DNA of 48,009 bases from Desulfobacteraceae bacterium (GTDB taxonomy: Bacteria; Desulfobacterota; DSM-4660; Desulfatiglandales; Desulfatiglandaceae), in the NCBI GenBank assembly GCA_003599015.1, contig QZIK01000048.1:1-48009 (forward strand), written 5' to 3'. Of this stretch, positions 37,121 to 48,009 are shown piece by piece. The position numbers and the translations under genes are program-made. Positions within the stretch are counted from its first letter, which is position 1, and each line of letters begins with the position of its first letter. A model generated the notes under the pieces. It did not search any database. It saw nothing but the letters and a program-made list of their open reading frames with translations, and was not told the DNA's origin.

Positions 37121-37968
37121 CTATTCTTCCTTTCTAAGGGTAAAATAAAAGGTTGCTCCCCTATTCGGCTCAGCATGTGCCCAGATCCTTCCCCCGTGGC
37201 GATGGATAATTCTCTGTACTATCGCCAGACCTACCCCTGTCCCCTCGAACTCCTTTATGCTGTGAAGACGCTGGAAAGCACCGAACAGCTTCCCTGCATA
37301 TTGCATATCGAACCCGGCGCCGTTGTCGTTAACCGAGTACATGATTTCATCTCCCAGGACCTCACAGTCCACTTTTATCAGAGCCCTTTCTTTCTTGGAG
37401 GAAAACTTAACCGCATTTGCCAAAAGGTTGATCCAGACCTGTCGAACAAGAGTAGGGTCACCAACCGCAGGGAGCAACAGGCCGACTTGAAAATCAATTC
37501 TTTTTCTGATCTCTGGATTGGTGAGTTCATGAAAAACCGAGTCGGCAAGTGTTGCCATATCTATTTTAGAGATCTGTATCTCGGCTCTTCCCACCCTTGA
37601 TAAGGCCAGGAGGTCCTCTATGAGTTTACCCATCTCTTTTGCGCTGTTGCTGATAATGCCGCATACCCGCTTTCCCTCCTCGTCAAGACGAGCAGTATCC
37701 TCCTAAGTTCTTTCTCCAGAGAAAAGGGCTTTCCTGTGCACTCATGAAAAAATCCATGAAGCTCCAAGGGGTCTCCTTCTTTGTGCCTCTGTGAAAGAAG
37801 AAGACGCGATGCGGCCTGATTGACATAAACAGGCCTTGCATCGGATGAGACAATGCAAAAAGGGATTGGAGCTTTCTCAAGCATTGGAAGGAATTGACTC
37901 TGTAAAAGACGGGAAAAGTTCATGGCATGTCCCTCTCTAACACAATTAATAATACTAGCATGATCCAA
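37121..37968 (-). pseudogene. Degraded PAS histidine kinase: N-terminal PAS fragment (37618..37968) and C-terminal HATPase fragment (37121..~37680) in different frames, H-box missing
   Basis: The HATPase fragment reads upstream as EDTARLDEEGKRVCGIISNSAKEMGKLIEDLLALSRVGR to an in-frame TAG. The PAS fragment ends in a different frame over the same bases. No H-box in either. Confidence 0.6.
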
Positions 37969-38696: not shown

Positions 38697-40472
38697 ATGC
38701 AAAAACGCAACGACATCCGAAACCTGGCAATCGTAGCCCATGTAGACCACGGAAAGACAACGCTTGTGGACGCCATGCTATGGCAGAGCGGGGTCTTCCG
38801 GGATAACGAACAGGTGGCTGAAAGGGTCATGGACAGCCTTGATCTTGAAAGGGAAAAAGGCATCACCATCATGGCCAAGAATACCGCCATAACCTATCGT
38901 GGGGTAAAGATAAATATAGTTGACACTCCCGGCCATGCGGATTTCGGAGGTGAAGTAGAGCGGACCCTCAACATGGTGGACGGTATCATGCTTCTGGTGG
39001 ATGCAACAGAAGGCCCGCTTCCCCAGACAAGATTCGTGCTGGGAAAGGCCCTTGCAAAAGGTCTTCCGCCCATAGTGGTGATCAACAAGATTGACCGGCC
39101 TGACAGACGCATCCAGGAAGTCCTCAATGAGATCTACGACCTGTTCATAGACCTGGACGCAACGGAAGAGCAACTGGATTTCCCGATCCTTTACACAAAC
39201 GCCAAGGCCGGGATTGCTCTCAAGGAGCCGGACGGAAAAGGAGGGGACCTGGTTCCCCTTTTTGATGCGATACTGGAATACATTCCCCCGCCGTCCTTTG
39301 ATCCCGCTTCGCCGCTCCAGGTCCTGGTAACAACCCTTCAACACAGCGACTACGTGGGAAGGATTGCTGTGGGAAAGGTGGTAAACGGAACCCTTTACCG
39401 GGGCCGAGAGGTAGTCCTGCTTAAGCCCGATGGAACAAGAAAAAAGGCATTGCTCAGCATGGTCTATTCTTACGAGGGGCTTAGCCGGGTTGAACGCGAC
39501 GAGGTACATGCAGGAGACATTGCCGCAGTAGCCGGCGTTGATGAGATCTACATTGGGGACACCCTTGGAGATTTGGAGGACCCTAGGCCCCTTCCCTCGA
39601 TAACCGTTGAAGAGCCGACCATATCCATGGTCTTTTCGGTTAACAGCTCACCCCTTGCCGGAAAGGAAGGAACTTTTCTTACCTCCCGTCACATCAAGGA
39701 AAGACTCGAAAAGGAACTTCTGTACAATGTGAGCATAAGGCTTGAGCAGGCTGAAAACAGGGATTCTTTCCGGGTGAGCGCAAGAGGGGAGCTTCAGCTT
39801 GCCGTACTGGTTGAAACAATGCGGAGAGAAGGCTTTGAGCTTTCCCTTTCCAAACCGACCATCATAACAAAGCTGGTGGACGGCACTTTAACCGAACCCA
39901 GGGAAATTGTGGTGGTGGATGTCCCTGAGGCCTTTCTGGGGATAGTAACCGAGATGTTAAGCTCCAGGAGGGGCAAGATGACCAGGATGATCAACAACGG
40001 CTTTGGACGGGTGCGGATGGATTTTGAGATCCCATCCAGATCGCTCATAGGATTTAGGAGCAGATTTTTAACCGAAACACGCGGCACGGGGATCCTTACC
40101 GCCATTGTCTCAGGCCGGATGCCTCATGCAGGCGAGTTAGCCGGAAGACCCAACGGCGTGCTGGTTTCTGACCGGGCGGGAAAGGCGGTTGCATACGCCA
40201 TATTCCACCTGCAGCCCAGAGGCACCATATTTGTCAAACCAGGGGACCCTGTCTATCCCGGCATGATAGTGGGCGAAAACTCCAGATCAAATGACCTCCA
40301 TGTAAACATTACAAAGGAAAAAAAGCTCACAAATATAAGGGCCTCAGGTTCGGATGAGGCCCTTCGGCTTATTCCACCCCGCCAGTTCAATCTCGAACAG
40401 GCAATGGAATACATATCAGATGACGAACTGGTGGAAGTAACCCCCAGATCCATAAGACTCAGAAAAAGATAG
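38697..40472 (+). CDS. typA: Translational GTPase TypA/BipA
   Basis: [46 protein letters not shown]-terminal [25 protein letters not shown]. Confidence 0.97.
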
Positions 40473-40474
40473 CC

Positions 40475-42196
40475 CTATTTGCCTTTTTTCTGAAGGATCT
40501 CGCCCCCTCCGAGCTCTCCCATGCTCGCCTTCTCTAAATCCGTCCAGAGGGTTCCCTCTCCTGCATGGATGAGGTTAACTCTTATGTCGGGGTTTATCCT
40601 GCCGGCAAATTCCCACAGGGAGAAGGCCGACGGATCGCCAAAGGCACCTGCTCTGAGGATAAGCCCCCTGGCCTTTTCACCCTCCACCTTTCTGATAACG
40701 TCCGCCTGTGCCTTTCCGAGCTTCATGGTCTTCTCAGCCCTGATCTCGGCTGTGCCCTTTTCTATCTCCGAGACCCTTTTTAACGCCTCTCCCGCTATCT
40801 CAGCCACACTTTTTTCCTGCTCTGCCCTGATAACAGCCTTAAGGCGTTCCGTCTGCTGGCCAACCTCCTGGCCCTTCTGCTGGATGAGGCTCAATTCGGT
40901 GTTCAACTGCGCCTGTTTTCGGGCAGTGTTCTGCTTTTCCTGGTTGGTGAGATCCTCTTCCTGGGCAATACTTGCCTGCTGGATGGGTTCCAGGATCTGC
41001 ATGGGCACGTTCACATGGCGGATAAGGGCATTGTGAATAACGATCTGCCTCTCGGCCAGGGTCTTGGCAAGGGTATCTTTCAAATCCACCTGGAACTTCT
41101 CCCGGCCTTCACCGACAATAAAATCCGTTGCCCTGTATGCCGATCCCTTGAGACGCGAGATGCTCAGGATCTGGGGCATTATGATCTTATCCACAACAGC
41201 CGGGAGATCCCCGAACTGCCGGAAGACCCAGGCAATTGATTCGGGCTTTAGCTCGAACTCCACCGTCATATCAAGGCTGATCTCAAAACCATCCCTGGAG
41301 GGGAAGGTGACGAACTGATCCAGAACAAATCCTGCCACCGCCGCTTCCACCGCCGTCTGGGGCCTTGGAGGGGCAGGAGGAGCGGGTTTTCCTGGAAGCA
41401 TCTTTTTTAAAGGTTCAACTGCCTGCTGATCCGCCTGAGTGGGTCTTGCCTTCTCAAGGTAGTCCCTCCTCCGTTCCTGCTGCTCCATGAGGGCCTGCTG
41501 CTGGAGGGCCCCCACCGCCACGTTGGCCTGCTGCTGAAGGGCAACCTTTTTTGTTACAACAGCGCTTCCCTCCTTTCCCAGAAGAGAGACCTGGTTGACC
41601 CCGATCTCCAGCACGTCAATCCTGAATTCCTTGGGGTTAGCGTAATAAAGACCGGGCTGAAGGATGTCGGCCCTCACCCCTTTCTGTCCCCTGGCCGCAA
41701 ACTCCCCTTCACCTGCCTGCCTGCCTGAAAGAGAGGTGACCACTCCCACATAGCCGATCGGGATACTGACAGCATCAAGGAGATCTATTCGATAACCGTA
41801 TGGATTCATGCGATATCGTCCCGGACCCACCAGCCTTCTCCATATGCCCTTCTGCCCCGGCTCGGCAAGGAATTCCTCCTGGGGAAGTTCACTGCCCACC
41901 TTGGAGGTTACAAGCCCTACCTTTCCGGCCGGAATGGTGACGACGGATCTTATTTCCACGTCATAAAGAAAGGGATCCCTGAAGTGGCGACCTTCGCCGA
42001 GCACATCCTCCTGGATTCCCTTCTGCCCTTTCTTAGCAAGTATCTGGCCCGGAGGCAGGCTTTCTCCTGTCTTGGCAATCACAATGGCCATCTTTCCCGG
42101 AGCAACATAAAAACGACAAAGAAACCATTGGTAGCCGCCCCACAGGAGGCCGAGGACTGCTATTATTCCAATAAAGGATAAGAGAGTTTTCTTCAT
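40475..42196 (-). CDS. Membrane-anchored SPFH/band-7 protein with three tandem N-terminal repeats
   Basis: N-terminal TM; three repeats of the form G..GL..SKVG..LP...LAEPGQKGI....VGPGRYRMNPYGYRI; SPFH core; long coiled coil. Confidence 0.8.
   Translation of the reverse strand: MKKTLLSFIGIIAVLGLLWGGYQWFLCRFYVAPGKMAIVIAKTGESLPPGQILAKKGQKGIQEDVLGEGRHFRDPFLYDVEIRSVVTIPAGKVGLVTSKVGSELPQEEFLAEPGQKGIWRRLVGPGRYRMNPYGYRIDLLDAVSIPIGYVGVVTSLSGRQAGEGEFAARGQKGVRADILQPGLYYANPKEFRIDVLEIGVNQVSLLGKEGSAVVTKKVALQQQANVAVGALQQQALMEQQERRRDYLEKARPTQADQQAVEPLKKMLPGKPAPPAPPRPQTAVEAAVAGFVLDQFVTFPSRDGFEISLDMTVEFELKPESIAWVFRQFGDLPAVVDKIIMPQILSISRLKGSAYRATDFIVGEGREKFQVDLKDTLAKTLAERQIVIHNALIRHVNVPMQILEPIQQASIAQEEDLTNQEKQNTARKQAQLNTELSLIQQKGQEVGQQTERLKAVIRAEQEKSVAEIAGEALKRVSEIEKGTAEIRAEKTMKLGKAQADVIRKVEGEKARGLILRAGAFGDPSAFSLWEFAGRINPDIRVNLIHAGEGTLWTDLEKASMGELGGGEILQKKGK
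41597..42100 (-). repeat. Three tandem ~57-aa protein repeats in the downstream SPFH protein
   Basis: Residues about 33-88, 89-145 and 146-200 align on GQKGI..(D/L)V..PGRY..NPY.Y. Confidence 0.75.
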
Positions 42197-43797
42197 GGCC
42201 TGCCTCCCTGCTTTCCTGTCATGGGGATCTGTATTTCTCCATGTCCCTTTGCGGCACCCTGGGATCTGAACGCCTCAAAAACACCTCCCAGCACATCGGA
42301 TTTGTCCGTGGTGAGTAGAGATCTGATGCGTGGGGCAAGGCTGGTATATAAAGTGTAACGGGCCAGTCCCATCCCTCCTCCAAACGCAGATGCCTGCTCC
42401 TTGAGGACCTGGGCCTGGGCTTCATTTTTGAGACTGATAACACCTGCCTCGGCACCCGCTGAAAGCAGCATGGACTGTACCTGGAATGATGCGGCATCGT
42501 TTTCCAGCTTCGCCACCTCCAGTTCCTTCATGGCTGCCGTAATTTTTACGTCCTGCTCCTGTCTGGCCCTTATCACAGCCCTTATCTTTTGGGTTTCGGC
42601 CTCCACCTTCTCCTTGTTCTGCTGGGCCAGCATCTCCTGGCGGGTAAGTTCCGCCTTGGATCTGGCCTGCTCTATCTGGCGGTCAAACATCTTGGCGGTC
42701 TGGACCGCCACCTCTCTTTCCCTGATGATGCGTGCTATCTCGTCAGGAGGCGAGATGTTGCGAATGAGCACTGACCTTATGCTCACCCCCCAGTCGGCGC
42801 AACGGTCCTTAAGATGCTGCTCCAGATTGTTTTGGAACTGCTGGCGGGTTTCACCCACGATGTAGGCTATGGCCGGGTTTTTACTTCCCTCTATCCGGCT
42901 GAATCCCCTTGCCCTTGGAAGAATTACCTTTTTCAGGATATCCTCCATATCCCCTACCTTGTGGGTGAGAAGTGCCGCGTGTTCCCTTTCAATGGAATAC
43001 TCAATGGTCCCTTCCACTGTTACCGTGAATCCATCCATGGTCAGGAAGGTAATCGCATCATCCCCGCTCATCTCAAACCTCTGGCTCTGGAGGGTCATCT
43101 CCACAACAGAAAACATATAAGGATTGAGATAATAGGACCCTGGATCCAGCACTTCAGATATGGCTCCCTTCATACCCCTTTCGACAAGGTATTTGTTTCT
43201 TTTTTCCGCAGGAAGATCCGAAGTTGCTACATCCTGTCCGATAAGAGAGGTAACGATGCCCACATGGCCTGGTCTGACGGTAACCGCATCAAACATCTGA
43301 ACCGTGTAGGCATATGGATTTATACGGTATTTTCCCGGCCTCAGCACATCGCCAACGATTCCCCTGCTCTTTGAATCGGCGATGATCATACCCGGCGGAA
43401 GGTCAGATCCAAAAAGCCTTATCAGCACCCCCAGCTTGCCTGCGGGTATGTCGGTCACCGGATGAATACTCCATCCCCAGGTGTAGGGATTCCTGAAGTA
43501 TCTTCCTTCAGGAAGGACCTCCATCTGCACGCCCTTCTGGTGGAGTCCGTCCGCGATTATCTGTCCGGAAGGAAGGTCCTGGCCGGTCTTTCGAATGAGT
43601 ACGGCTATCTCATCAGAATCGGGCTCTATACGGCAGAAAACCCAGAACCATACGCAAAGGGCAAATATAACCATCGGAATAAGGAGCCACCCTCCTGCCT
43701 TCCACCAGGGAAAGATCCGGCCTCGGCTGGAAGACGGCTTTCTCTTGACTGAAACGATTCGCTTTTCCTCAGGCTCATTCTCTTCTTGCATAACCAA
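42193..43797 (-). CDS. Paralogous membrane-anchored SPFH/band-7 protein with three tandem N-terminal repeats
   Basis: TM helix, repeats with LPEGRYFRNPY, LRPGKYRINPYAY, LDPGSYYLNPYMF, SPFH core, coiled coil. Overlaps the next gene by ATGA. Confidence 0.82.
   Translation of the reverse strand: MVMQEENEPEEKRIVSVKRKPSSSRGRIFPWWKAGGWLLIPMVIFALCVWFWVFCRIEPDSDEIAVLIRKTGQDLPSGQIIADGLHQKGVQMEVLPEGRYFRNPYTWGWSIHPVTDIPAGKLGVLIRLFGSDLPPGMIIADSKSRGIVGDVLRPGKYRINPYAYTVQMFDAVTVRPGHVGIVTSLIGQDVATSDLPAEKRNKYLVERGMKGAISEVLDPGSYYLNPYMFSVVEMTLQSQRFEMSGDDAITFLTMDGFTVTVEGTIEYSIEREHAALLTHKVGDMEDILKKVILPRARGFSRIEGSKNPAIAYIVGETRQQFQNNLEQHLKDRCADWGVSIRSVLIRNISPPDEIARIIREREVAVQTAKMFDRQIEQARSKAELTRQEMLAQQNKEKVEAETQKIRAVIRARQEQDVKITAAMKELEVAKLENDAASFQVQSMLLSAGAEAGVISLKNEAQAQVLKEQASAFGGGMGLARYTLYTSLAPRIRSLLTTDKSDVLGGVFEAFRSQGAAKGHGEIQIPMTGKQGGRP
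43090..43623 (-). repeat. Three tandem ~58-aa protein repeats in the upstream SPFH protein
   Basis: Residues about 59-117, 118-174 and 175-236 share (D/E)VL.PG.Y..NPY. Confidence 0.75.
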
Positions 43798-44056
43798 GTT
43801 CCTCCTTCCTGAAAGCAGCCGACTGTTTTATGAAATCATCATAAGGTCATAAGACTGGAATGCAGTTTTTCTTATGGATATTAACTTGGCAGAGATGCGG
43901 AAAGCAAGTCCCCAAGCTCATACCTTAATATATGCCTGGGATAAAGGAGAATCAAAACGCAGGATTTCAATCTCAATTTCAACTTACCTCATTATTATTT
44001 CATGTCGTTCTTATGCAATATAGAACTGCTTTCAACCGCCAACTTAAATCATTTTT

Positions 44057-44100: not shown

Positions 44101-45675
44101 CTAAGCATTTGTGATTTGGGCTGGAATGGTTGTTACGGGAAGCGTTACAGTAAAGGTGGAACCATGACCCTCTTTGCTGTTGACCCTTATACGGCCACTG
44201 TGTTTTGCAACTATACCCTGAGAGACGGAAAGTCCCAGGCCGGTGCCCCTGCCCTTGGCCTTGGTGGTAAAAAAAGGATCAAAGATGCTGCCAAGGATGT
44301 GTTCAGGAATGCCTCTGCCGAAATCCACCACTTTTACGGCGACATAACCAGGTTCATCAGCGGGCATAAGAAGGACATGGATCTTTCCGCCCTTACTGGA
44401 TGCATCTATAGCGTTAAGGATAAGATTTAGAAAAACCTGTCTTAGCTGCTGGCTGTCCCCGTGGACGCGAGGCAAATAGCCGGTTGACTGCAAGTCAATC
44501 TTTATACCGGACAGCTTGAGCTGATTGGACGCAAGAGCGATTGTCTCCCTGAGGATCTTTTCAAGATCAAGGGGTTCCACCTGAGAACTGCTTTCTCTGG
44601 CGAAATCAAGCAGGTTGCTGATAATGGATTTTGATCGACCCGCTTCTGCCACCACATCTTCCAGCATATCCTTTCTCTCTTCGTCCGACAGCTTCTCATA
44701 ATCTTCAAGGAGCATGTGTGCTGTAAGCGTTATATTGTTGAGCGGGTTATTGAGCTCATGAGCCACACCCGCGGTAAGGGTTCCCACCGCCCTCATCTTA
44801 TGGGACTGGACAAGAACCGCCTCACGGCTTTCCAGCTCCAGGATCATCTGGTTGATGGCAATGGCAAGATCTGTAAATTCATCTCTGAACCGGCGAGATG
44901 GAGTAATGGGCGTGAAGTCGCCTGAGGCTATTCGCTGGGCATAAACTGAGAAGCGTTCGATTGTACCAAGAATCCTTTTCCCGAGGAGATAAGCGTTTAC
45001 AATCAGCAGCACCAGAATAAAACCAAGGGCATAGACATGAATCCTGCGTGACCAGAGAAGCGCCTCTGATAGGGCCTCCTTTTCTTTCTTCATCAGTTCC
45101 TGACCAAAGGAGACCATCTTCTGGCCCTGCTCCCTGAGCTCAAACTCTATCTCTTTCTTTTTACCCTGATATTGCAGGATGTCTCCTTCACGGGTGTCAA
45201 GTTCTGCCAGCACCTTAAGGAGGGTTTCATATCGCTCGAGATTGCTTATGATCTGGGCGTGCCTGTCCTTGCCGAGTATCCTTTTCAACTCCTCGACATC
45301 TCCGGCATATATCTCCTTGGCCCGATAAACGTTTTCAAGAGCATCATTCAGGTTGGTTCCGTAAAGGAAGAAGTTTTTTTCAAAACGCCTTGCCTGCTGG
45401 ATCTCCAGCATGTAGTCATTAACGATCTCAAGAAACCTTAGCTTTGTTTCCACCTCATGGCTTACAATGATCAGAATTGTCCCGGTCGCAGCGGCAAACA
45501 GAAAAACCAGGAGAAAACTGAGATAAAGCTGCATCCTGAAGGAGAAACGCGGGCGGGCCAGCAGGCCCTCACGGGCCGACTCCGCAGCCTTTATACGCTC
45601 ATAGCGGCCCTCCAGGGTCACCCCCCCCTCCACCGCCGACTTCTCTGCTTCTCCATCTACCAGCATCCTGAACAT
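44101..45675 (-). CDS. Membrane sensor histidine kinase (periplasmic helical sensor-HAMP-HisKA-HATPase)
   Basis: TM at [18 protein letters not shown], helical sensor region, HAMP, H-box [33 protein letters not shown]. Confidence 0.92.
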
Positions 45676-45696: not shown

Positions 45697-46095
45697 CTAT
45701 TCATTCCCTTCAGAAACAGCCACTCCAAGGGCCTGCGCTGCCTTGGCAATAGCCTTTCTCAGTTCCTCAGGCGTAAAGGGCTTTGCTATGAAGTCATAGG
45801 CTCCCTTCTCCATTGCCTCGCGGGCAAGAGCCATCATTGCATATCCGGTTATCATTATCACCTTGGTGCGCGGGGACCTTTTTTTTACCCGCTCAAGGAC
45901 CTCTATCCCATCTATATCATCCATGCGAATATCGGTTACCACTATATCGAAGGTCTTTTCTTCTATTCTATTCAAGGCTGATTTGGGGTCCTCGAACACC
46001 TCCACCTCACATCCAATCTTTTCCACGGCCGGTTTAAGTCTTCTACCCACAATGGGTTCATCATCCAGCAGCAGGACATTCAGTTTTTGCGCCAT
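45697..46095 (-). CDS. Single-domain response regulator
   Basis: VLLLDDEPIVGRRLKPAVEKIG, DIVVTDIRMDDIDGIEVLE, MITGYA, DFIAKPFTPEEL. ATG at 46095 has GGAGG five bases upstream. Confidence 0.9.
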   Translation of the reverse strand: MAQKLNVLLLDDEPIVGRRLKPAVEKIGCEVEVFEDPKSALNRIEEKTFDIVVTDIRMDDIDGIEVLERVKKRSPRTKVIMITGYAMMALAREAMEKGAYDFIAKPFTPEELRKAIAKAAQALGVAVSEGNE

Positions 46096-46156
46096 GTTTG
46101 CCTCCATCTCATTTCAGGTCGCTGGGTTATAATAAGGGCCAGGGAAATAGGAAATC

Positions 46157-46981
46157 TCACCTAAAACTCTGTGCCGCCTGCCTGAATATATCGTTTACCA
46201 CATGCACCTCCACATACTTGACGCCGTCTATCTTTCCCGCCATCTCCTTAATCATTTCGGATTTCCGGCGTTTCTCCCTCTTCATGCCTTTTGTCTCAAC
46301 AACGATAGTTGACCCGCTTGCCCTTACCTTTGCATCCGGAAACCGAGGCAGCAGAATGGTCCTGGCCCTTGAAGCGATCTCTTCGTCCCTCAGGCACTTG
46401 ATGGAATAGCTCATGGCCTTGAACTTCTTGTATCCGGCAGCCTCGACGATTGAGTTTACGGCCTCACCTGTTTCTATCTTATTAAGACTTATAACCATAT
46501 CATAACAGCCGGGGTCGGTCTCATCCACGGAAAATGCCTTGAGAGACCATCTCCTCCTGAAGTTCTCAAATCGTTTCAATGCCCTCTGAAGGGCTTCTCC
46601 GGAGAGATTTTTTCCTTCGGCTATCTCCCTTACGAGATCCTCCTGCGGGCAGAGTATCCTCACCTTCAAAACATGAGAGACGCCGAGGACATAGAGGTGT
46701 GCGGCCATCCCGTGGCAGACGACATTATCCTTTAGAAACTCTTCAACAACAGCCTGCTCCATGTGTGCCAGATAAAGGGTCTGTTCCCTTTGAGACATGC
46801 CCAGCACCGATGGAGTCTTATCCAGAGCCTTGATAAGCTTTTCTCTTGAAATGCCGGACTTTTCTGCCACATGTTCGATAATTTCCCTGTCAAGATAACG
46901 ATATCCGAGTTTCTTTGCCGTCTTTTCACCAATCTCTCTCCCGCGTCTGTATGACTCCGATGAGATCGCTATAATTGTCAT
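46157..46981 (-). CDS. Cytidylate-kinase-like family protein with BON-like C-terminus, paralog 1
   Basis: MTIIAISSESYRRGREIGEKTAKKLGYRYLDREIIEHVAEKSG...; C-terminal ARTILLPRFPDAKVRASGSTIVVETKG...IDGVKYVEVHVVND. Confidence 0.75.
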   Translation of the reverse strand: MTIIAISSESYRRGREIGEKTAKKLGYRYLDREIIEHVAEKSGISREKLIKALDKTPSVLGMSQREQTLYLAHMEQAVVEEFLKDNVVCHGMAAHLYVLGVSHVLKVRILCPQEDLVREIAEGKNLSGEALQRALKRFENFRRRWSLKAFSVDETDPGCYDMVISLNKIETGEAVNSIVEAAGYKKFKAMSYSIKCLRDEEIASRARTILLPRFPDAKVRASGSTIVVETKGMKREKRRKSEMIKEMAGKIDGVKYVEVHVVNDIFRQAAQSFR

Positions 46982-47028: not shown

Positions 47029-47841
47029 TCATACGGCACTTAAAGGGGCAGTAGATCCTGAATGAACTTCCATGCTGTTGATTCCTTCCACCGTTTCTTC
47101 AAGCGGTTTTACCGCCTGGCGCAGTTTATTGGCGTGCCTTTCCCCTGATGTTGTATAGATAACCACATTTCCATATTCACACGTAACCATAACCTCGGGG
47201 AATTCCTCTATAAGGGCAGCCTTTACTGCGCAGGCTGTATCAAGATCATCCAGCTTCTGCTGGGATGAGGCAGTTGTTTTGAATGCCTCGCGGCAGGCCG
47301 CCCGGCAGATAAGGTCAACCGCATCGTCAAAGGAGAGCCTGTCTATCTTAAGCACAAGATCGTACAGAGAGCTGTCCCAGGGATCTGCTCCGTAAAGGCT
47401 CTGTGTCCATTTGCGGCGTTCCTGGTCGTCGGCCGTTATTATTGCGCGGGCCTTTTCCATGTTGATACCCTCGCGCTCGGCCTCTTTTTTTGCCCTTGTT
47501 TCAAGATCTGCAATAATCCTGACTTTCAAGACATGGGGGACACCTTTAAGAAGCAGATGCCCCGCAAGCCCGTGATAGACCACATTGTCTTTTTTCACCC
47601 TTGACACAAGAGCGCTTCGTATGAATGCCACATATACAGTCTTTTTTCGCCCCAGCCTTTCAAGTATGGAAGGGGCATCGTGAATGGCCCTGACAAGCTT
47701 TATCTCATCCACATGATATCTGCCGCTGGCGTCCAGAAGGACTTCCCTGCTTATGCAATCGTATTGGAGGAACTGTGCGACTTTTTCTGCCACCTCCTTT
47801 CCGCTGCTGTATGAACCCCGTGATATGGTTATTATCCCCAT
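47029..47841 (-). CDS. Cytidylate-kinase-like family protein with BON-like C-terminus, paralog 2
   Basis: MGIITISRGSYSSGKEVAEKVAQFLQYDCISREVLLDAS...; C-terminal VKAALIEEFPEVMVTCEYGNVVIYTTSG...VEGINSMEV. Start at 47841 preferred. Confidence 0.78.
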   Translation of the reverse strand: MGIITISRGSYSSGKEVAEKVAQFLQYDCISREVLLDASGRYHVDEIKLVRAIHDAPSILERLGRKKTVYVAFIRSALVSRVKKDNVVYHGLAGHLLLKGVPHVLKVRIIADLETRAKKEAEREGINMEKARAIITADDQERRKWTQSLYGADPWDSSLYDLVLKIDRLSFDDAVDLICRAACREAFKTTASSQQKLDDLDTACAVKAALIEEFPEVMVTCEYGNVVIYTTSGERHANKLRQAVKPLEETVEGINSMEVHSGSTAPLSAV

Positions 47842-47890
47842 AAGCTGACTCCCTTTTCTAATAATATCATGAATAAAAAACTCATCTCCC

Positions 47891-48009
47891 TTAACAGGCT
47901 GTTGAAAACCCCCATCTGCTGCGTTTTGCTCATCCCTTGTCACTGCGGCGTACTGTTAAGTACGCCTCATTCCTCGTGATATCGCAGGCCTTGCATCTGG
48001 GCATTTTTC
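47891..48009. repeat. Imperfect long inverted-repeat element, truncated by the window edge
   Basis: AGGCTGTTGAAAAC...CCATCTGC on the left mirrors GCATCTGGGCATTTTTC on the right; central GGCGTACT-GTTA-AGTACGCC palindrome at 47947-47966. Confidence 0.55.

What the first reader, a model, noticed from the sequence alone, without database searches (positions are those of the whole stretch)
40475..43797. Paired SPFH proteins with triple N-terminal repeats: a possible bacterial vault-like or HflKC-like cage
Seen: two overlapping genes (ATGA) each encode one N-terminal TM helix, three tandem ~57-aa repeats ending in a (V/L)xPGxYxxNPYxY motif, an SPFH/band-7 core, then a long charged coiled coil. Known: the eukaryotic major vault protein has tandem N-terminal repeats, an SPFH-like shoulder and a cap helix; HflK/HflC form an alternating membrane-anchored dome. 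Inference: this pair could build a hetero-oligomeric membrane cage whose walls are made by the repeats.
Basis: partly seen in the sequence, partly recalled or inferred. Interest (0 to 1): 0.78.

Follow-up and report, generated by a model that had tools for sequence, protein, structure and literature searches.

The report
Membrane SPFH pair with vault-like repeats
Two bacterial membrane proteins, always encoded side by side, carry tandem beta-repeats whose predicted shape best matches the wall of the eukaryotic vault, suggesting a taller membrane-bound relative of the HflK/HflC cage and a possible clue to how vault walls arose.

Summary
Genes B (42193-43791, -) and A (40475-42196, -) overlap by ATGA. 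Each encodes one N-terminal TM helix, three ~57-66-aa repeats, an SPFH core and a long helix.

The pair is a conserved cassette. B and A are adjacent in all 15 contigs found besides the window (Desulfobacterota, Verrucomicrobiota, Lentisphaerota), overlapping by ATGA in 14. Among 395 phylum genomes both occur in the same three and never alone. Their distance matrices correlate at r=0.96.

The repeats match major vault protein (MVP) in predicted structure. Modelled alone (pLDDT 86), their twelve best PDB matches are all MVP, led by the MVP R1-R7 crystal over all three repeats. Canonical SPFH proteins match one repeat's length, so the unit is probably a duplicated SPFH N-terminal lobe. Relatives have 3-7 copies; MVP has nine.

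Limits: sequence profiles show no significant MVP link, no MVP Pfam model matches, TM-scores are 0.36-0.47, and assembly is untested. These are not MVP or HflK/C family members.

Best reading: an N-terminally anchored, probably periplasmic A/B hetero-oligomeric SPFH cage (roughly 32 subunits by a published regression) with a wall raised by two extra vault-like lobes per subunit. Function remains inferred.

The parts
42193..43791 (-). Gene B (upstream): TM helix, three repeats, SPFH core, coiled coil; 532 aa from the ATG at 43791 (first-stage TTG start 43797 gives 534 aa)
40475..42196 (-). Gene A (downstream): TM helix, three repeats, variable insert, SPFH core, coiled coil, conserved GTLWTDL tail; 573 aa
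42193..42196 (-). ATGA stop/start overlap between B and A; an ATGA overlap is found in 14 of 15 homologous contigs (L023 has TAAATG)
42203..42208 (-). Shine-Dalgarno-like GGGAGG inside the end of B, upstream of A (translational coupling, inferred)
43801..43807 (-). Shine-Dalgarno-like AAGGAGG upstream of B
43633..43689 (-). B transmembrane helix (residues 37-55)
43447..43629 (-). B repeat 1 (residues 57-117)
43273..43449 (-). B repeat 2 (residues 117-175)
43078..43275 (-). B repeat 3 (residues 175-240), overlapping the N-lobe of the SPFH/Band_7 domain
42745..43062 (-). B SPFH core (residues 246-351)
42385..42744 (-). B long helix / coiled coil (residues 352-471, about 120 aa; low-confidence break at 378-383)
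42131..42187 (-). A transmembrane helix (residues 4-22)
41930..42112 (-). A repeat 1 (residues 29-89)
41759..41932 (-). A repeat 2 (residues 89-146)
41591..41761 (-). A repeat 3 (residues 146-202), overlapping the N-lobe of the SPFH domain
41321..41590 (-). A-specific variable insert between repeat 3 and SPFH core (residues 203-292)
41003..41320 (-). A SPFH core (residues 293-398)
40643..41002 (-). A long charged helix (residues 399-518, by homology to B)
40529..40594 (-). A conserved C-terminal motif region VN(I/L)(L/I)HAGxGTLWTDLEKA (residues 535-556); HxGxGTLWTDL is invariant in the family alignment

Best explanation
A and B are two SPFH paralogues made in coupled translation that probably co-assemble, alternating, into one membrane-anchored cage of the HflK/HflC kind. 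The N-terminal TM helices fix it in the inner membrane, with the body probably in the periplasm. Between membrane and SPFH dome each subunit carries two extra copies of the SPFH N-terminal beta-lobe, which stack head to tail and build a taller side wall, as MVP repeats build the vault barrel. The long C-terminal helices form the dome and the distinct A and B tails close the cap. By analogy with other SPFH cages it would sequester or sort membrane proteins or lipids. Status of the steps. Shown: pairing, repeats, conserved ATGA coupling, repeat-number variation in relatives. Predicted: the fold and its MVP match. Inferred: oligomerisation, periplasmic side, wall role, cargo function. A copy number near 32 is a rough extrapolation from a published regression.
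For: Architecture: Band_7 hits; AF2 model of B; isolated-repeat model pLDDT 86, pTM 0.76, with three main antiparallel strands per unit. The literature describes MVP R1-R9 as antiparallel three-stranded beta repeats (PMC13347060). Vault match: full-length B finds MVP first in the PDB (E 1.9e-12), ahead of HflC, prohibitin and stomatin. The isolated repeats find MVP at ranks 1-12, including the R1-R7 crystal 3gf5, which has no SPFH domain (E 9.8e-4, 187 columns, prob 1.00). Prohibitin, HflC, stomatin and erlin align over only 71-86 columns, and matches outside these families have prob <=0.03. Lobe duplication: Band_7 overlaps repeat 3. In the long-repeat relatives HflC and stomatin align instead to repeat 1 (P 4e-4 and 3e-4; reversed stomatin control 0.12). 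A unit HMM counts 7, 5, 4 and 3 copies in relatives. Obligate pair: B and A adjacent in all 15 contigs besides the window, ATGA in 14 of 15, co-occurrence 3/3 among 395 genomes, mirror-tree r=0.957 with 0/2000 permutations. Canonical HflK/HflC-like genes exist elsewhere in this genome, so this is an extra system. Copy number: CC1 regression y=0.1782x+10.22 (PMC12624060) with x about 120 gives about 32.
Against: No sequence-profile relation between the repeats and MVP (hhalign prob <2), though the MVP side was a single sequence. TM-scores 0.36-0.47 are below the usual 0.5 line. Alignment depth was 15-30 sequences. The Foldseek E-value for the isolated repeats is modest. Positive-inside bias is weak for A (mean K/R 1.3 vs 1.1) and clearer for B (2.3 vs 1.4), and the 7-repeat relatives show the opposite bias. 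No oligomer model and no function data. Nearby genes are not conserved, so there is no functional hint.
Confidence: 0.62

Rival explanations
1. An HflKC-like or stomatin-like membrane scaffold in which the extra lobes are not a wall but flexible arms or binding modules that reach for partners (peptidoglycan, outer membrane, substrate).
For: The SPFH body plan is clear. Repeat number varies between relatives from 3 to 7, which a variable reach would also explain. TM-scores to MVP below 0.5 allow a different inter-repeat packing.
Against: The isolated repeats fold as one continuous array with pTM 0.76, not as loose beads, and the best matches are an oligomeric wall protein.
Confidence: 0.22
2. 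A true bacterial vault: an MVP orthologue that closes into a complete cage by base-to-base pairing.
For: Top structural match is MVP.
Against: N-terminal TM helix in every A and B where MVP uses repeat 1 for half-vault pairing. No Vault or MVP_shoulder Pfam match; no MVP_shoulder match in 395 phylum genomes, although that control did not ring. Three repeats rather than nine.
Confidence: 0.03
3. The resemblance to MVP is convergent: simple stacked beta-units built independently by duplication of a short SPFH hairpin in bacteria, with MVP repeats of separate origin. (This concerns ancestry, so it can hold together with the cage mechanism.)
For: No sequence-level link to MVP. Tandem duplication clearly recurs in this family.
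Against: Both proteins place the repeats directly before an SPFH domain and long helix, and MVP outranks every other beta-repeat protein in the PDB. Duplication from the same parent lobe in both lineages would still make the units homologous.
Confidence: 0.35
4. Each protein forms its own homo-oligomer and the operon only sets dosage.
For: QmcA and stomatin are homo-oligomeric SPFH cages (PMC12624060).
Against: Coupled ATGA overlap kept across phyla, strict co-occurrence, matched divergence r=0.957, and two-paralogue SPFH cages such as HflK/C, PHB1/2 and FLOT1/2 alternate (PMC12624060).
Confidence: 0.12

Closest known systems
Major vault protein (MVP), eukaryotic vault
   Same: Tandem antiparallel three-stranded beta repeats, then an SPFH-like shoulder, then a long cap helix; best PDB match for the full B model and for the isolated repeats
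   Different: Three repeats rather than nine; N-terminal TM helix; two paralogues; no detectable sequence similarity of the repeats; no Vault or MVP_shoulder Pfam hit
HflK/HflC inner-membrane SPFH cage
   Same: Two adjacent paralogues, N-terminal TM helix, SPFH domain, long helix; structural hit 7vhq E 3.1e-11
   Different: Two extra N-lobe repeats; NCBIfam hflC score 18.3 against cut-off 134.4; this genome has separate HflK/HflC-like genes on another contig
Stomatin / prohibitin / erlin / flotillin SPFH cages
   Same: SPFH core and coiled coil; one repeat matches their N-terminal lobe; B profile aligns to the stomatin-like protein from residue 218 on
   Different: They carry a single N-lobe; no tandem repeats
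Long-repeat bacterial SPFH proteins (loci L014-L019, L043-L048)
   Same: Same repeat unit by HMM, N-terminal TM helix, SPFH domain
   Different: Single gene; 3 to 7 repeats; units mostly longer at ~74-78 aa; no family name found in Pfam or NCBIfam beyond Band_7 where tested

Membership tests
SPFH / Band_7 superfamily | Band_7 domain above the curated cut-off | tested here: met
   A 53.7 bits, B 94.6 bits against cut-off 23.6
SPFH / Band_7 superfamily | Long alpha-helical region after the SPFH domain | tested here: met
   B helices 352-377 and 384-471 in the AF2 model
SPFH / Band_7 superfamily | Ring or dome oligomer | not testable with these tools
   No multimer prediction or experiment available
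HflK/HflC | HflC equivalog score above cut-off | tested here: not met
   B 18.3 bits against 134.4; A no hit
HflK/HflC | Two paralogues encoded side by side with N-terminal TM helix | tested here: met
HflK/HflC | Association with FtsH | not testable with these tools
   Needs biochemistry
Major vault protein | Vault or MVP_shoulder Pfam match | tested here: not met
   No match for A, B, homologues or single repeats
Major vault protein | Tandem three-stranded beta repeats N-terminal to the SPFH-like domain | tested here: met
   AF2 model of repeats; PDB ranks 1-12 all MVP; a prediction, with TM 0.36-0.47
Major vault protein | Nine repeats | tested here: not met
   Three in A and B; 3 to 7 in relatives
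Major vault protein | No permanent membrane anchor | tested here: not met
   Hydrophobic N-terminal helix in A and B
Major vault protein | Sequence-profile similarity of the repeats | tested here: inconclusive
   hhalign prob <2 for the repeats in all comparisons; the MVP profile was a single sequence

The most novel reading that the evidence does not exclude
The vault wall arose by tandem duplication of the SPFH N-terminal lobe, and this pair with its 3-7 repeat bacterial relatives represents living membrane-anchored intermediates between the HflK/C-type dome and the vault: half-vaults fixed in the bacterial envelope.
Probability: 0.3. Interest if true: 0.87.

Novelty: new variant of a known kind. 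Interest (0 to 1): 0.66.

Why it matters
[quoted passage not shown] A 2021 review leaves the prokaryotic origin of MVP open (PMC7916137). Membrane-anchored bacterial SPFH proteins with 3 to 7 vault-like repeats contradict the strict form of the first statement at the level of predicted structure and make the second question testable: one can solve these cages and ask whether the repeats form a wall, and whether repeat number sets cage height. The pair is a compact two-gene system with a homologue in a named strain, Desulfoferrobacter suflitae DRH4 (L024).

Tried and rejected
Sequence link to MVP: HMMER profiles of B and of the long-repeat family against PDB sequences found no MVP; hhalign of repeats, full families and a 90-sequence unit profile against human MVP gave prob <2 for repeats, no better than weak register-correct hints.

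MVP in the phylum: MVP_shoulder search found nothing, but the control genomes also gave nothing, so absence is not shown.

Functional context from neighbours: ORF clustering over 15 contigs found no conserved third gene; flanking genes are CRISPR parts, efflux, AraC regulator, sugar enzymes and the like.

Anti-phage defence: no PADLOC match for A, B or two neighbours.

Known family name: NCBIfam and Pfam give only Band_7 or sub-threshold hits. The 2009 classification of prokaryotic SPFH proteins mentions no N-terminal repeats in the passages searched; its SPFH11a/b pair is adjacent, but 11b lacks a coiled coil, unlike this pair.

One scripting error: the stomatin profile was built from a wrong ORF; it was redone.

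Full report
What is there. The window (a 3.0-Mb, 66% complete genome in 149 contigs) encodes two overlapping minus-strand genes. B (upstream) is listed as 42193-43797, but its start is more likely the ATG at 43791: AAGGAGG lies 9 nt upstream of it, only 3 nt upstream of the TTG, and relatives start there. A is 40475-42196. B's TGA and A's ATG overlap as ATGA, preceded by GGGAGG. Both carry a Band_7 domain, one N-terminal hydrophobic helix and a long helix (B by model; A by homology).

The repeats. Unit pairs within one protein are 23-42% identical and cross-protein pairs 24-46%. No shuffle of 2000 reaches the observed self-similarity in A or B. The best cross-protein identity for each A unit is with the unit at the same position in B (A1-B1 46%; A2-B2 40%, tied in identity with A2-B3 but with a higher score; A3-B3 37%), which suggests the three-repeat layout is older than the A/B split. 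Repeat 3 overlaps the start of the canonical Band_7 domain, so the novelty is about two extra copies of that lobe.

The pair as a unit. A genome-collection scan with B found 15 contigs from Desulfobacterota, Verrucomicrobiota, Lentisphaerota and one unassigned bacterium, at 59-82% identity. A sits directly downstream in all of them (one copy, L027, is cut by the contig end), and the ATGA overlap is kept in 14 of 15. In the window's class only two of 85 genomes have B, both in one genus. In 395 phylum genomes A and B occur in the same three genomes and never singly (weaker B matches at E about 1e-25 are the long-repeat proteins). A and B form two separate groups, each on one side of a branch, and their distance matrices correlate at r=0.957, 0 of 2000 permutations. 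No other neighbour is conserved. Patchy spread across phyla suggests lateral transfer of the two-gene cassette (inference).

Relatives with more repeats. A unit HMM built only from A and B finds seven units in ~840-aa proteins (L014-L018), five in L019, four in L043-L045 and three in L047-L048, all in the same phylum. These are single proteins with the same order: TM helix, repeats, SPFH, helix. Their first repeat, rather than the last, shows the profile match to HflC and to the stomatin-like protein, while in B the match begins in repeat 3. Both facts fit duplication of the lobe that lies between TM helix and SPFH core.

Structure. AF2 of B from 15 sequences gives repeats at pLDDT about 75-90, but overall pTM 0.47. 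Foldseek against the PDB ranks MVP first (E 1.9e-12), followed by HflC (3.1e-11), prohibitin, erlin and stomatin. To remove the SPFH core from the test I modelled the repeats alone from 30 A and B sequences: pLDDT 86, pTM 0.76. Their twelve best PDB matches are all MVP, led by the R1-R7 crystal, which contains repeats only; alignments span about 187-194 columns in most rows, TM 0.36-0.47, best E 9.8e-4. SPFH cages match over 71-86 columns, one unit. Unrelated folds have probability 0.03 or less. I take this as good evidence that the unit is the SPFH N-lobe and is MVP-repeat-like, and as suggestive evidence, not proof, of homology with MVP repeats. Sequence profiles do not reach MVP.

Mechanism. 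SPFH proteins studied so far form rings or domes, and two-paralogue members alternate (PMC12624060). The most likely reading is an A/B cage anchored by N-terminal helices, with the repeats raising the side wall and the helices forming the dome. With a helix of about 120 residues the published regression gives about 32 subunits; the helix boundary is uncertain, so this is a rough forecast. Charge bias around B's helix favours a periplasmic body (mean K/R 2.3 on the N side, 1.4 on the C side; acidic residues 0.3 and 2.5), A is neutral, and the long-repeat proteins are opposite, so sidedness is open. The A-specific insert and the invariant GTLWTDL tail are the clearest differences between partners, probably cap or lumen features (inference). 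Function by analogy: sequestering or sorting membrane proteins or lipids. The genome has separate HflK/HflC-like genes on contig 31, so this pair is additional.

Against known families. Member of the SPFH superfamily: yes. HflK/HflC: fails the equivalog score. MVP: fails the Pfam models, repeat count and lack of anchor; resembles it in predicted repeat fold and domain order. Searches of the held literature found no description of bacterial SPFH proteins with tandem vault-like repeats; the library lacks most subscription journals and preprints, so novelty is provisional. A 2021 review notes that BLAST links between MVP and prokaryotic band 7 proteins had been seen and that an MVP origin in prokaryotes is unresolved (PMC7916137).

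Noticed in passing
L014-L019, L043-L048: Single-gene SPFH proteins with 3 to 7 tandem copies of the same lobe in Desulfobacterota; not named by Pfam or NCBIfam beyond Band_7 where tested.
   Followed up: partly
window 46157-46981 and 47029-47943: Two adjacent divergent Cytidylate_kin2 proteins, next to a response regulator (45697-46107) and histidine kinase (44101-45675) on the same strand.
   Followed up: no
window 37121-37968: Two overlapping minus-strand ORFs (170 and 116 aa) that look like C- and N-terminal parts of one sensor kinase, possibly a frameshift.
   Followed up: no
window 40337-40475: A and BipA/TypA (38697-40472, +) converge with 2 bp between them; a terminator-like hairpin for A's strand lies inside the BipA gene (40364-40337). 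BipA follows the pair also in L022.
   Followed up: no
genome contig 31 (L002, L004): Adjacent canonical HflK/HflC-like genes in the same genome, separate from the window pair.
   Followed up: partly
L024 2039-4671: Cas6 and a Cas_NE0113 CRISPR-associated gene lie upstream of the pair in Desulfoferrobacter suflitae; not seen at the other loci examined.
   Followed up: no
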